Of a DNA stretch of 26,880 nucleotides, positions 7,026-11,641 are shown in pieces (the first letter of the stretch is position 1; each line of letters begins with the position of its first letter). Origin of the DNA: a virus. The position numbers and the translations under genes were made by a program. Below the pieces are notes generated by a model, which did not search any database, was not told where the DNA came from, and was given only the letters and a program-made list of their open reading frames with translations. The stretch spans positions 1 through 26,880 of IMG/VR virus record IMGVR_UViG_3300007276_000245, one strand, 5' to 3'.

Positions 7026-7667
7026 ATGCGCAACACACTAAATGAACATTTAACTTTCGATCAAGCAAACATTGTTACTGAAGCTGTGGATAACGGCAAA
7101 GGTGGAAAAGATTTGTACATGGAAGGTATATTTGTTCAAGGTGATGCACGCAATCAAAATCAGCGCGTATATCCATCTTCGGAAATTCGAAAAGCAGTTA
7201 ATTCGGTTCAAGAAAAAATCCAAGGTGGTTATTCAGTGTTGGGCGAAGCAGACCACCCAGATGATCTACAAGTGAATCTGGACCGAGTATCACACATAAT
7301 TGAAAAAATGTGGATGAACGGTAATGATGGTTATGGCAAGCTAAAACTATTACCAACACCAATGGGCAACATATGTAAAACTTTGTTGGACAATGGCGTA
7401 AAATTAGGCGTGTCGAGTCGCGGTAGTGGTAACGTAGGTGCAGATGGTAATGTGTCGGAATTTGAAATTGTAACAGTTGATATTGTTGCAAATCCAAGTG
7501 CTCCAGATGCATATCCAGACCCACTCTACGAGGCTATCATGAATGGTAGACGTAGCGACATTATTATGGACGTTGCGAAAGCTATAAATCACGATACAAA
7601 AGCCGAAAAGTATCTCCAGGAAGAGGTACTTAATATGATCAATAACCTAGATATTAGGAGAAAATAA
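7026..7667 (+). CDS. gp21: Prohead core protease (gp21)
   Basis: A 213-aa T4-like prohead protease, a serine endopeptidase that is activated inside the assembled prohead. It cleaves scaffold, core and capsid proteins so that DNA can enter; known T4 sites follow (L/I)xE. Family landmarks are GEADHPDD with the probable catalytic His77, a VSHII segment, GKLKLLPTPMGN, and KLGVSSRGSG containing the catalytic Ser (Ser130 or Ser131). T4 gp21 is the same size (about 212 aa). The gene begins 2 nt after the core gene, and its stop overlaps the scaffold ATG (TAATG), so the three are one translational unit. No catalytic landmark is missing. Confidence 0.95.
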   Translation: MRNTLNEHLTFDQANIVTEAVDNGKGGKDLYMEGIFVQGDARNQNQRVYPSSEIRKAVNSVQEKIQGGYSVLGEADHPDDLQVNLDRVSHIIEKMWMNGNDGYGKLKLLPTPMGNICKTLLDNGVKLGVSSRGSGNVGADGNVSEFEIVTVDIVANPSAPDAYPDPLYEAIMNGRRSDIIMDVAKAINHDTKAEKYLQEEVLNMINNLDIRRK

Positions 7668-8086
7668 TGGCAAATGCAATTGAACAACTCCTAAGTTCAG
7701 AAGTTCTTTCAGAAGAAGTTCGTTCTACACTATCAGAAGCTTGGGAAACTAAGTTAACTGAAGCACGTGAAGAATTGACTAATGAACTTCGTGAAGAGTT
7801 CGCAAATCGTTATGAAACTGACAAGCAGCAAATGGTGGAAGCCTTAGACGCAATGATGTCAGATACAATTACAACGGAATTACGTGAATTCGCAGCAGAC
7901 AAAAAAGCAGCAGTAGACGCAAAGGTGACTTACACAAGTCAAGTTGCGGAACATGCTAAGATGCTGGACACTTTTGTAATGGAAACTTTAAAGAAAGAAA
8001 TTACAGAATTGCGCGATGATCGCAAACTACAAGAAGGAAACTTTGAAAAGTTAGAAGACTTTGTAATGGAGCAACTAACTACTTAA
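7667..8086 (+). CDS. gp22: Prohead scaffold protein gp22, N-terminal part (ends at premature TAA)
   Basis: The first 139 codons of the T4-like scaffold (main prohead core) protein, which directs capsid shell assembly and is then digested by gp21. The sequence is Glu/Lys-rich and predicted helical throughout, without Cys. Translation starts at the ATG overlapping the protease stop, with TAGGAG 7 nt upstream. It ends at TAA 8084-8086, but the same frame is open immediately afterwards and continues with gp22-like coiled-coil sequence to 8776. As one gene it would span 369 codons with one internal stop. The break is a nonsense codon, not a frameshift, because both parts are in the same frame. Confidence 0.85.
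   Translation: MANAIEQLLSSEVLSEEVRSTLSEAWETKLTEAREELTNELREEFANRYETDKQQMVEALDAMMSDTITTELREFAADKKAAVDAKVTYTSQVAEHAKMLDTFVMETLKKEITELRDDRKLQEGNFEKLEDFVMEQLTT
8084..8086 (+). other. In-frame TAA interrupting the scaffold gene
   Basis: Codon 140 of the scaffold frame is TAA, in the context ACT ACT TAA CTT AAC. The downstream frame continues at once with LNDFHQDKQDLLTEKVKL, which is typical scaffold coiled-coil content. One substitution (for example from GAA, CAA or AAA) would restore a continuous 369-aa reading frame. Confidence 0.9.
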
Positions 8087-8158
8087 CTTAACGATTTCCA
8101 CCAAGATAAACAGGATCTGTTAACAGAGAAAGTTAAATTGGTACAAGAAGGCAAGAAA

Positions 8159-8776
8159 ATGATTGCCGAGACGAAGCGTGAATTCATCTCTAAAGCAAGT
8201 GCAAAATTAGCGAACATTGTTGAATCAACAGTGACTGGCGAGTTAAGCACACTTAAAGAAGATATCATGCTAGCTAAAGAAAACATGTTTGGACGCAAGA
8301 TTTTTGAAACTTTTGCAACTGAATTTATGAGTTCACATTTAGCAGAAGGCACACAGGTTTCTAAATTAAGCCTTGAACTATTAGATATGAAAACTGCTTT
8401 AGCAGAATCAGAATCTACTATTTCTGAAAAAGAAACATTAATTGAATCAGCAAACAAAAAGCTAAAGCGAGTTAATGAACGCGCTGAACGTAATAACGTA
8501 ATGGCTGATCTATTAAAGCCCTTGTCGAAGGACAAGCGTGAGTTAATGTCAAATCTACTTGAAAGCGTTGCTACTAGCAAACTTACTGTAGCATATGACA
8601 AGTATATTGGCACAGTTTTGAATGAAACTGTTACCTCTACTGAAAAACGCACTACGCAAAAACTTAACGAGTCCCGCACTAGCGAGATCACAGGTGATAA
8701 AACTAGCACACACGATCAAAGTACTGAAAGTAATGCAGATATCATTAACCTTAAAAAATTAGCTGGTATAAGCTAA
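8159..8776 (+). CDS. gp22: Prohead scaffold protein gp22, C-terminal part
   Basis: The continuation of the scaffold gene after the stop at 8084-8086. Sequence homologous to T4-like gp22 begins directly after that stop (8087), so the part from 8087 to 8158 also belongs to the original gene. If translated independently, the best start is ATG 8159, with AGAAGG at 8146-8151 giving 7-nt spacing. TTG 8138 is a weaker in-frame choice. The product would be about 205 aa, highly charged and helical, with scaffold-type segments such as LKEDIMLAKENMFGRKIFE. It ends 17 nt before the major capsid gene. Whether this half is made alone, by readthrough, or not at all cannot be decided from the sequence. Confidence 0.8.
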   Translation: MIAETKREFISKASAKLANIVESTVTGELSTLKEDIMLAKENMFGRKIFETFATEFMSSHLAEGTQVSKLSLELLDMKTALAESESTISEKETLIESANKKLKRVNERAERNNVMADLLKPLSKDKRELMSNLLESVATSKLTVAYDKYIGTVLNETVTSTEKRTTQKLNESRTSEITGDKTSTHDQSTESNADIINLKKLAGIS

Positions 8777-8793: not shown

Positions 8794-9957
8794 ATGTCAC
8801 AAAATTTATTTGAAAACTGGAACGTAACTAAAGACGCTCTAACTGACGGTTTAACAGGCAACAAGAAATCTGTAATGGAATCTGTGCTTGAAAACACTAA
8901 GAACTATTTAACAGAATCAGCAGCAACTGGTTCTACAATGGCTGGCAACATCGCTACTATGAACAAGGTAATTTTACCTGTCATCCGTCGTGTAATGCCT
9001 ACCGTAATCGCTAACGAATTGGTTGGTGTTCAGCCAATGACTGGTCCTGTTGGACAAATTCACACATTGCGTGTGCGTTATTCTGAAGCAGCAACTGGCG
9101 TAACAGCAGGCGACGAAGCATTGTCTCCATTCGCTATCGCTAAAGGCTATTCTGGTGATGATGCTACTGGTGGACCAGCAGCAACTTCAGCTCTTGAAGC
9201 ATCAGCGGGTCGTAAGCTTTCAATCCAAGTATTGAAGCAGACTGTTGAAGCGAAGACACGTAAGTTGTCAGCACGTTGGACTTTTGAAGCAGCACAAGAT
9301 GCTAACTCAATGCACGGTCTTGACGTTGAAGCTGAAATCATGCAAGCACTTGCACAAGAAATCACAGCAGAGATCGACCAAGAAGTTCTTACTTCTTTAC
9401 GCGCTCTTTCTGGTACTGCAACCGATACATACGATCAAGGCAACGTTTCTGGCGTAGCAACTTTCGTAGGTGATCAGCACGCAGCACTAGCAGTTTTGAT
9501 TAATCGCGCAGCAAACTTGATCGCAGCACGTACTCGTCGTGGCGCTGGTAACTACGTTGTAGTTTCACCAACTATGTTGACTGTATTACAATCTGCTACT
9601 ACTTCTGCGTTTGCACGTACAACTGAAGGTCCTTTTGAAGCACCTACTAACACTAAGTTTGTTGGTATGTTGAACAACACTATGAAAGTATTTGTTGATC
9701 AGTACGCTTCTGACGCTACTCCAATCCTAGTAGGATATAAGGGTGACGGCGAAATGGACGCAGCAGCATTCTACTGCCCATATATTCCACTAATGTCTTC
9801 TGGTACTGTACTAGATCCATCAACATTCGAACCTACTGTGTCATTCATGACTCGTTATGGTTATGTTGAGTTGAATAACCAGGCTTCATCTCTTGGTAAT
9901 GCAGCAGACTACTTGGCTAAGATTGGCGTTGATGCAACGGCATTGTCTTTCCAGTAA
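8794..9957 (+). CDS. gp23: Major capsid protein (gp23)
   Basis: The T4-like major capsid protein, building the hexamers of the head. Recognisable stretches are VILPVIRRVMPTVIANELVG, LSARWTFEAAQDANSMHGLD followed by VEAEIMQALAQEI, the VVVSPTMLTVLQ strand, and the C-terminal FMTRYGYVELNNQ region. At 387 aa it is clearly shorter than T4 gp23 (521 aa). The N-terminus should be removed by gp21: YLTE41/S42 fits the (L/I)xE rule and lies at the right kind of position. AAGGAG at 8778-8783 is the ribosome site. Codon choice is slightly more GC-rich than in flanking genes, as expected of the most abundant product. No gene 24 (vertex protein) follows. Confidence 0.97.
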   Translation: MSQNLFENWNVTKDALTDGLTGNKKSVMESVLENTKNYLTESAATGSTMAGNIATMNKVILPVIRRVMPTVIANELVGVQPMTGPVGQIHTLRVRYSEAATGVTAGDEALSPFAIAKGYSGDDATGGPAATSALEASAGRKLSIQVLKQTVEAKTRKLSARWTFEAAQDANSMHGLDVEAEIMQALAQEITAEIDQEVLTSLRALSGTATDTYDQGNVSGVATFVGDQHAALAVLINRAANLIAARTRRGAGNYVVVSPTMLTVLQSATTSAFARTTEGPFEAPTNTKFVGMLNNTMKVFVDQYASDATPILVGYKGDGEMDAAAFYCPYIPLMSSGTVLDPSTFEPTVSFMTRYGYVELNNQASSLGNAADYLAKIGVDATALSFQ

Positions 9958-9980
9958 ACCCTAATTTTAAATTAGAAATA

Positions 9981-10008
9981 AAAAAACAGCCTACGGGCTG
10001 TTTTTTTT
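9981..10008. terminator. Bidirectional intrinsic terminator with UACG tetraloop
   Basis: The stem ACAGCC (9986-9991) pairs with GGCTGT (9996-10001) around a TACG loop, a member of the very stable UNCG class closed by a C-G pair. An A-run (9981-9986) precedes it and an eight-T run (10001-10008) follows. It can therefore stop transcripts from both directions: gp23 from the left and the minus-strand cassette, whose last stop codon is at 10011, from the right. Confidence 0.93.
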
Positions 10009-10010
10009 GT

Positions 10011-10319
10011 TTATAAACTAAGTTTTAGTAATGCTAATGTAGATTCATGTTTAATATAATATACTTCACATTTGATGTTACAGTCATAATGATATGCTAC
10101 ATCACCATTGTATAGTCGCTTCATAGTAAATGTAGAATTTCGCATACTTTTTAAACTTTCACTAGAATCAAAAAATATATATTTTTTGTTATCGTTGCCT
10201 ACTAACTTCTTTAGTGATGTTGGTATCATTTCATTAGAGTTAAATATATCATTTTCTATTTTATAATTAAATCCAAAATGAAATAATTTAGATCGTCTAT
10301 CTAACCTTTTAATTTGCAT
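10011..10319 (-). CDS. Unknown small protein of the minus-strand cassette
   Basis: A 102-aa protein I do not recognise. It is basic, with aromatic-rich strands (KKYIFFDSS, KCEVYYIKHE), no signal peptide and no membrane segment. Its ATG (10317-10319) overlaps the end of the metallopeptidase-like gene by 11 nt, so it is probably translated by coupling and belongs to the same operon. It ends right at the bidirectional terminator. Partnership with the upstream protein is inferred from the overlap only. Confidence 0.65.
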   Translation of the reverse strand: MQIKRLDRRSKLFHFGFNYKIENDIFNSNEMIPTSLKKLVGNDNKKYIFFDSSESLKSMRNSTFTMKRLYNGDVAYHYDCNIKCEVYYIKHESTLALLKLSL

Positions 10320-10980
10320 AGTAACTCGCTGTATATTTAAGTAACTGTTTTATTTGATTTGCTCCCTTAGGGAATATAGCACGATAGCGGGCATAAACTG
10401 GTAATTCATCAATAAACATTTCTGGATTACGCAAAGCAATCGATGGGTTACTAGATTCTTTAATCTCAACAGATAGATCGTGACCATACGCCATTATTTC
10501 ATGCGGGTCACGCAAGTAACTACGCATCCAATCTCTATCACTGCCCCCATTCTCTTTAAGTATCAATCCTTTTTGATGTCCAGATCGTAGAGTTTCTATT
10601 ACGAGAGGACTAATTTTATCATATTGATTGAAGTGAATAGTTTCATGTGCAAGCATCTTCATTACGATTTCTTTGAATGAATCAGGTCCCCATACATTCT
10701 CAAGATTTTTTGAATGCAAGATTACAGTTATTGTTTTACCATCTAGAATTGACCAATCTGCCATTGCAGAAATCCATTCATCTTTGTCCGCACGAGGCTT
10801 GTCATTTACAATAAATTCAATAGATAACTCTTCTATGTTATTGGAATTTAATATATCTGATAATTCTTCTATATCATCGACATCATCATTATTTTCAAGA
10901 AAAATTAAATACTCGATATTTGAGCGATCTATGATTTCTTCTATAGCAGCACTGAAATTAGTATCTGGTTTGATATTCAT
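10309..10980 (-). CDS. Putative HExxH zinc metallopeptidase
   Basis: A 223-aa protein with a zinc-peptidase-like signature: MLAHETIHFNQYD places HETIH at residues 112-116. Forty-five residues further on, RDPHEIMAYGHD supplies Glu161 as a candidate third zinc ligand, the spacing seen in gluzincin-type enzymes. The N-terminal 100 residues are acidic with no recognised domain. No signal peptide is visible, so it would act in the cytoplasm or be packaged. It is the first gene of a two-gene cassette on the strand opposite to the head genes. It has its own sigma70-type promoter (11011-11039), which suggests early or host-driven expression. Substrate is unknown. The motif is short, so peptidase activity is inference. 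Confidence 0.72.
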   Translation of the reverse strand: MNIKPDTNFSAAIEEIIDRSNIEYLIFLENNDDVDDIEELSDILNSNNIEELSIEFIVNDKPRADKDEWISAMADWSILDGKTITVILHSKNLENVWGPDSFKEIVMKMLAHETIHFNQYDKISPLVIETLRSGHQKGLILKENGGSDRDWMRSYLRDPHEIMAYGHDLSVEIKESSNPSIALRNPEMFIDELPVYARYRAIFPKGANQIKQLLKYTASYYAN

Positions 10981-11010
10981 ATATTATCTCAATAATTAAC
11001 TTACTTACCT

Positions 11011-11039
11011 ATTTTACAGTAAAGTATATCACTTGTCAA
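11011..11039 (-). promoter_or_regulatory. Sigma70-type promoter for the minus-strand cassette
   Basis: Read on the minus strand, TTGACA (11039-11034) is followed after exactly 17 nt by TAAAAT (11016-11011). This is a perfect -35 and a 4/6 match to the TATAAT -10. Transcription would start near 11004, about 24 nt before the metallopeptidase-like ATG. It sits back to back with the late promoters of the fibre block. Confidence 0.78.
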
Positions 11040-11048
11040 GTGAAATTT

Positions 11049-11074
11049 GATAAATACTTAAAAGCATAAATAAG
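11049..11074 (+). promoter_or_regulatory. Tandem late promoter motifs upstream of fibre block
   Basis: Two T4-type late elements lie 15 nt apart: GATAAATACTT (11049-11059) and GCATAAATAAG (11064-11074), ending 30 nt before the ATG at 11105. The spacing to the start resembles that at the portal gene. Which of the two is used, or whether both are, cannot be told. Confidence 0.65.
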
Positions 11075-11104: not shown

Positions 11105-11641
11105 ATGTCATCAGTAATAAACCCAGATAGTGGTTCACTACATATATTAGGTACGATAGATACCATTAGTGGAATCAGTTCAAAACTCAATATCACCAAT
11201 ATTTCAAACGTGAATTTAGCAACTCCTACTCTGGGAGATGCAGCACTAAATGTAACTGGTGGTGGATATATTGGTGGGCATTTATATGTAGACGGAAGTA
11301 TTGTTGCAAATGGTGATATAGTCACATTGGGCAATACAGGATCAGGTGTTATTATCGATGTGAGTCCTACCGTAGCGACAACCACAATTAATGCCAATTC
11401 AAGTGTATCATATCTTAATGCAACAACAAGTTTAGCATTAGCATTGGGCAATGGTACAGAAGGACAGATAAAGGTAATTGCAGTTACAGGAACACCAACT
11501 GGGACTGTAGTTATAACCCCAACTACCTCATTGGGATATACATCATTTAACTTGACAAATATAGGTGAATCTGTTACCATAGTTTATACAATTGCGGGTT
11601 GGGCTGTGACCTCTGTAAATGGAGCAATTATAACAGTATAA
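11105..11641 (+). CDS. Small beta-rich virion protein (fibre-type)
   Basis: A 178-aa Thr/Ser/Gly/Val-rich protein with no Cys and an alternating beta-strand pattern. The C-terminal half (GTEGQIKVIAVTG, TGTVVITP, a TSFNLTNIGESVTIVYTI stretch, then WAVTSVNGA) matches a module common in structural proteins of marine T4-like phages. A signal peptide is absent, as expected for a virion protein. AAACGGAGAATATA directly precedes the ATG, and tandem late promoters lie upstream. It is the first gene of the fibre block. An exact role (short fibre, head decoration or whisker-like) cannot be assigned. Confidence 0.6.
   Translation: MSSVINPDSGSLHILGTIDTISGISSKLNITNISNVNLATPTLGDAALNVTGGGYIGGHLYVDGSIVANGDIVTLGNTGSGVIIDVSPTVATTTINANSSVSYLNATTSLALALGNGTEGQIKVIAVTGTPTGTVVITPTTSLGYTSFNLTNIGESVTIVYTIAGWAVTSVNGAIITV

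What the first reader, a model, noticed from the sequence alone, without database searches (positions are those of the whole stretch)
10011..11040. Early-type metallopeptidase cassette inserted in the late head region
Where T4 has gene 24, this phage has two minus-strand genes with their own TTGACA-17-TAAAAT promoter. They are sealed from gp23 by a bidirectional terminator. The first has HETIH plus a downstream DPHEIMAYG with a candidate third ligand. Opposite strand, own promoter and own terminator are the marks of a self-contained accessory (moron-like) module, possibly acting on a host protein. The partner gene is unrecognised and overlaps it.
Basis: partly seen in the sequence, partly recalled or inferred. 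Interest (0 to 1): 0.56.

Follow-up and report, generated by a model that had tools for sequence, protein, structure and literature searches.

The report
Phage protease that changed delivery route
A marine T4-like phage carries a zinc protease gene that its relatives seem to pack into the virus head for injection, but here the gene has moved, lost the packing tag and gained an early promoter, which suggests one enzyme family reaching the host cell by two routes.

Summary
In detail: two minus-strand ORFs (223 and 102 aa) lie behind gp23, with a TTGACA-17-TAAAAT promoter and a bidirectional hairpin. The 223-aa protein belongs to a family absent from Pfam and not found in 50,697 phage records, but present in uncultured marine T4-like phages. 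H112, E113, H116 and E161 are invariant in the 20-row family alignment. A confident AlphaFold model (pLDDT 90) shows the zincin layout: three strands, a HExxH helix, a Glu helix. Zinc geometry was not measured.

The main new result is a contrast. In 26 of 32 distant full-length family rows a late-type ATAAATA box precedes the ATG. In 29 of 32 the protein begins with a short peptide (e.g. MRLHELIE|A) fitting the T4 capsid-targeting/gp21 cleavage pattern. The gene often sits beside the neck gene. The window clade has one copy, behind gp23, without peptide or late box, under a strong early-type promoter. Empty or differently filled sites in relatives show an accessory locus.

Best reading: a zincin effector, injected with DNA in most relatives, here made early in the cell. 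Substrate and timing are untested. The partner gene is fast-evolving and replaced in one lineage, so not an obligate pair.

The parts
10309..10980 (-). 223-aa zincin-like metallopeptidase, no capsid-targeting-like N-terminal peptide
10633..10647 (-). HETIH motif (residues 112-116); H112, E113, H116 invariant in the 20-row alignment
10498..10500 (-). codon of E161, candidate third zinc ligand, in an invariant RDPxE context
10969..10980 (-). N-terminus MNIK, where relatives carry M..(L/I)xE|A before the same core
10011..10319 (-). 102-aa partner ORF, fast-evolving, replaced in L005-L008
11011..11039 (-). early-type promoter TTGACA-17-TAAAAT, about 30 nt before the peptidase ATG
9980..10007 (.). 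hairpin terminator with A7 and T8 flanks, readable both ways; the gp23 terminator with a lengthened A-run
11049..11056 (+). late-type box GATAAATA facing the next plus-strand gene (11105)
   Evidence: sequence; late consensus recalled
11065..11072 (+). second late-type box CATAAATA
   Evidence: sequence
8794..9957 (+). gp23 major capsid protein, left border of the accessory site
11105..11641 (+). 178-aa plus-strand gene, right border of the accessory site

Best explanation
The 223-aa protein is a stand-alone zincin-type zinc metallopeptidase of marine T4-like phages. In most sampled relatives it is made late, carries an N-terminal capsid-targeting peptide, is presumably clipped by the gp21 prohead protease and enters the host with the DNA. 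In the window clade the gene lies away from its usual neighbourhood, in an accessory site behind gp23, on the other strand. It lacks the targeting peptide, so that it starts about where the mature protein would, and it is driven by an early sigma70-type promoter. The enzyme would then be made in the cytoplasm at the start of infection and cleave a host protein, for example a defence or regulatory protein. Shown: gene, conservation, different location, N-terminal and promoter contrast, predicted fold topology. Inferred: zinc binding, proteolysis, packaging of relatives, early timing, host target.
For: Family: the search for related loci. H112/E113/H116/E161 invariant in 20 of 20. AF2 with 20 rows: pLDDT 90.4, pTM 0.84, helix 99-121 holding HExxH, helix 159-174 holding E161, strands 54-59/70-77/81-89. 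This is the order described for phage zincin MPTases (PMC5512222, passages). Weak structural neighbours include several zincins (2ejq Z 4.3, 3e11 3.3, 4bzs 3.0). In BFVD two unnamed viral proteins have E<1e-4. N-termini: L/I-x-E, the gp21 rule (PMC9026906 section 9), in 15 of 21 distinct family N-termini against 18 of 155 other ORFs of the same loci. The late box is within 45 nt of the ATG in 26 of 32 non-window tree rows and 0 of 4 window-clade rows; the early promoter is in 0 of 32 and 4 of 4. Tree: window clade 100/100, and the outgroups L137 and L127 carry the peptide. One peptidase match per record, and in G001, G002 and G004 the usual C1-C2 junction lacks it. Sites: empty in L015 and L020, other content in L016, L018, L019.
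Against: No Pfam or PADLOC match, and PHROG only at E about 0.02. PDB Foldseek has nothing at E<=0.001, and VIA Z stays under 5. Zinc geometry was not measured. No virion proteome or RNA data exist here. The N-terminal peptide is a pattern match; some CTS-bearing copies lie outside late structural clusters (L141/L142 next to primase and helicase, no late box). In G004 and G002 late-box ORFs are hardly richer in CTS-like starts (2 of 16 against 9 of 141; 2 of 12 against 4 of 74). The direction of change rests on long-branch outgroups.
Confidence: 0.55

Rival explanations
1. A virion-assembly peptidase: the enzyme trims head or neck proteins during morphogenesis, and the N-terminal peptide merely brings it into the prohead, as has been proposed for gp21 itself.
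For: Common neighbours are the head-tail adaptor and tail sheath/tube genes. A zincin of group 1 jumbo phages was suggested for maturation (PMC7824862, passages).
Against: Patchy: 4 of 15 records searched, all fragments and chosen as gp23 relatives, lack it, and no match was found in 50,697 phage records. In the window clade it has an early-type promoter and no late box. Some copies sit outside structural clusters.
Confidence: 0.2
2. An ordinary accessory hydrolase with an early promoter; the N-terminal peptide of relatives is a chance helix and the family was never packaged.
For: The CTS is a short pattern; 18 of 155 other ORFs match it too.
Against: 15 of 21 against 18 of 155; it co-occurs with late boxes. 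Other proteins of these genomes begin alike, e.g. MKSFTEYLTES and MRISDIITES.
Confidence: 0.17
3. A two-gene toxin/antitoxin or enzyme/adaptor pair made of the peptidase and the overlapping small ORF.
For: 11-nt overlap and shared promoter.
Against: The partner is replaced in L005-L008 and the canonical copies have other neighbours; dN/dS 0.41-0.65.
Confidence: 0.06

Closest known systems
Zincin-like MPTase domains of phage polyvalent proteins (PMC5512222, passages read)
   Same: Three strands, HExxH helix, later helix with Glu; phage proteins thought to act on entry into the host
   Different: Stand-alone 223-aa protein, no fused domains, about 37 residues with extra helices between the two zinc-site helices, no detectable sequence match
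T4 Alt and internal proteins IPI-IPIII with capsid targeting sequence (PMC9026906 section 9 and passages; PMC3012670 passages)
   Same: Relatives have a short N-terminal peptide ending in L/I-x-E, mostly behind late-type boxes
   Different: T4 internal proteins are not metallopeptidases; the window protein has no such peptide
Jumbo-phage SprT-like and ArdC-like MPTases (PMC7824862, passages)
   Same: HExxH metallopeptidases, patchy, proposed to target host proteins
   Different: No significant sequence or fold match here; different delivery context

Membership tests
Zincin-like metallopeptidase superfamily | HExxH plus a downstream Glu, conserved | tested here: met
   Invariant in 20 of 20 rows
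Zincin-like metallopeptidase superfamily | Core of strands, HExxH helix, Glu helix | tested here: met
   Order of elements in the pLDDT 90.4 model against the description in PMC5512222; order only, no superposition
Zincin-like metallopeptidase superfamily | Significant fold match to a solved zincin | tested here: inconclusive
   Best Z 4.3, Foldseek PDB none at E<=0.001
Zincin-like metallopeptidase superfamily | Zinc bound; proteolysis | not testable with these tools
   needs protein
T4-type capsid-targeted internal proteins | N-terminal propeptide ending in L/I-x-E, window protein | tested here: not met
   Starts MNIKPD; 0 of 4 clade members
T4-type capsid-targeted internal proteins | Same feature, distant relatives | tested here: met
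   15 of 21 distinct N-termini strict, 19 of 21 relaxed
T4-type capsid-targeted internal proteins | Present in virion, clipped by gp21 | not testable with these tools
   no proteome
Moron (self-contained accessory module) | Own promoter, variable presence at the site | tested here: met
Moron (self-contained accessory module) | Own terminator | tested here: not met
   It shares the gp23 hairpin found in 69 of 70 sequences

The most novel reading that the evidence does not exclude
One phage effector family switches between two delivery modes: packed in the capsid by a cleavable targeting peptide and injected, or relocated, stripped of the peptide and put under an early promoter. The tree needs three changes of the peptide, so the address tag looks like a labile evolutionary switch, and the injected form implies a protease that acts before any phage gene is expressed.
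Probability: 0.5. Interest if true: 0.72.

Novelty: new variant of a known kind. Interest (0 to 1): 0.58.

Why it matters
Injected phage enzymes are hard to recognise because they share only a short tag. A family in which the tag and the promoter class trade places gives a natural control: the same enzyme delivered or synthesised early should do the same job. It would also add a protease to the small set of T4-type injected proteins and supply a rule for finding others in uncultured marine phages.

Tried and rejected
Homology by Pfam, PADLOC and HMMER against PDB chains gave nothing usable. PHROG matches are weak: phrog_16532 in 11 of 20 members, best E 0.017. Enterococcus tail-protein hits at E 0.6-2 were judged chance. 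The first AF2 job with 4 rows was poor (pLDDT 54.5) and not used. Foldseek against PDB had no row at E<=0.001. A profile search of six cultured phages (T4, KVP40, HTVC008M, Serratia BF, Salicola SCTP-2, Vibrio 2.275.O) gave 0 of 6, so the 'Structural protein' BFVD hit of Serratia phage BF (E 0.05) was not followed. One genome-contig scan found 0 relatives, with poor N-terminal patterns. Partner against the L005 ORFs: hhalign probability 9, E 0.0036, too weak to call homologous. Link between a terminator A-run of 6 or more and a minus-strand next gene: one search gave p 0.067. By reading, both exceptions L058 and L066 do have a minus-strand ORF against the hairpin, so it is suggestive only.

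Literature searches. Listings were read, and passages of PMC3012670, PMC5694885, PMC9026906 (plus its section 9), PMC7824862 and PMC5512222. None of what I read described this family; most subscription papers are not in the library.

Full report
What is there. Behind gp23 (8794-9957 +, Gp23 E 8e-100) lie two overlapping minus-strand ORFs, 10309-10980 (223 aa) and 10011-10319 (102 aa). The first has HETIH (112-116) and E161. Its promoter is TTGACA-17-TAAAAT, the best of 43 matches in the 7-kb scan. Aligned with L003, L004 and L005, the -35 box, the 17-nt spacing and a TAnAnT-type -10 are kept while part of the spacer varies. In a 148,882-base record of the same clade (G004), TTGACA-17-TAnnnT occurs 32 times against 3.8 in dinucleotide shuffles, 14 of 32 lying 20-45 nt before an ORF start; in G002 the figures are 14 against 2.8, with 4 of 14 so placed. 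So the promoter belongs to a class this phage group uses, often before small ORFs. That the class is early is an inference from T4-like biology.

Selection. In four distinct clade members dN/dS is 0.05-0.10 for the peptidase, 0.13-0.17 for gp23 and 0.41-0.65 for the small ORF (three members). The peptidase dS (0.44-1.12) is several times that of gp23 (0.10-0.16) beside it, which suggests a separate history. In L005-L008 the peptidase stays but the partner is replaced by two tandem ORFs of about 100 aa whose kinship with the partner is unproven.

The family. Protein searches of 50,697 phage records gave no match to the window protein and only one chance-level partial hit to a relative; a profile search of six cultured phages gave 0 of 6. 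IMG/VR scans gave relatives at 44-62% identity. In a 20-row alignment H112, E113, H116, D121, D158 and E161 are among the invariant columns. AF2 on that alignment: pLDDT 90.4, pTM 0.84; strands 54-59, 70-77, 81-89, helix 99-121 (HExxH), inserted helices, helix 159-174 (E161). Zincin MPTases of phage polyvalent proteins are described as a three-stranded sheet, a helix with HEXXH and a helix with the Glu ligand (PMC5512222 passages). Direct fold matches are weak: no PDB row at E<=0.001, VIA best Z 4.3, with zincins such as 2ejq, 3e11, 4bzs and 4l7a among unrelated rows; BFVD has two viral proteins without a known function at E<1e-4 and, lower down, several SprT-, M10-, M34- and IrrE-named rows.

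The contrast. Of the 32 non-window rows in the tree, 26 have a late-type nATAAATA box within 45 nt before the ATG and 29 have a short N-terminal extension such as MRLHELIE|A, MRFWELTE|A or MLIRELLE|A; none has the TTGACA promoter. Of the 4 window-clade rows, 0, 0 and 4 have these features (L128 and L139, partial genes, were left out of the tree). T4 gp21 cuts after L/I-x-E, and the first 10 residues of IPIII suffice for incorporation into the head (PMC9026906, section 9 and passages). Strictly, L/I-x-E fits 15 of 21 distinct family N-termini against 18 of 155 other ORFs of the same loci. These counts are not corrected for relatedness. Within G004 and G002 late-box ORFs are not clearly richer in CTS-like starts; in G012 they are (9 of 43 against 24 of 388, Fisher p 0.003). 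Exceptions: L122/L123 lack tag and late box; L143 lacks both; L137 and L141/L142 have the tag without the box. For the L109/L112/L114/L119 group I took the second of two possible ATGs as the start.

History. The window clade is one side of a branch with 100/100 support and a long stem (0.83). The outgroup rows L137 and L127, both long branches, carry the tag, and the tree needs three changes of it, so loss in the window clade is the simplest reading. In 30 contexts examined, gene C1 (phrog_11903) occurs in 21 and the neck gene C2 (phrog_211, head-tail adaptor) in 15, often flanking the peptidase, with tail sheath and tube genes following. In the clade records G001, G002 and G004 the C1-C2 junction exists without the peptidase, and each record has one copy. 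The gene therefore is not an extra copy but sits elsewhere.

The site. Among gp23 relatives with the right-hand gene still recognisable, L015 and L020 have it about 136 and 102 nt behind gp23 with little more than the hairpin and a TAAATA-type box between; L016 has plus-strand ORFs in between, and L018 and L019 carry manA RNA, L018 also a glutamine riboswitch. In L017 a phosphoesterase- and a glycosyltransferase-like gene follow gp23. The 80 loci are the best of more than 600, and many end soon after gp23. A hairpin follows gp23 in 69 of 70 sequences examined; an A-run of 6 or more before it occurs in 4 of 4 carriers and 2 of 65 others with a hairpin.

Mechanism. Most likely the enzyme is a cytoplasmic zinc protease acting early on a host protein. 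In relatives it would arrive with the DNA; here it would be made from an early promoter on the strand opposite to the head genes, with the gp23 hairpin stopping transcription from both sides. Residue conservation, predicted fold order, the different location and the tag/promoter contrast are shown; packaging, timing, proteolysis and target are inferred.

Noticed in passing
window 7667-8086 and 8138-8776 (+): The gp22-like scaffold ORF is split in two here, while relatives L001-L005 have one ORF of 367-369 aa: a frameshift in this record, real or from assembly.
   Followed up: partly
L017 6771-6986, L018 2935-3335, L019 7311-7517: The region behind gp23 in relatives carries glutamine riboswitches, manA RNAs and a tRNA-Trp.
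   Followed up: partly
L158 and L165 (170-aa ORF), L161 and L168 (202-aa ORF): Other proteins of the clade begin with CTS-like peptides, MKSFTEYLTES and MRISDIITES, the latter before a nucleotidyltransferase-like GRFQPMHSGH motif: candidates for packaged proteins (motif names recalled).
   Followed up: no
L058 7162-7628, L066 7162-7570: Another small minus-strand ORF abuts the gp23 hairpin, again with a long A-run, perhaps an independent insertion of the same kind.
   Followed up: partly
L005 8542-9277: Two tandem small ORFs, 55% identical, replace the partner gene.
   Followed up: partly
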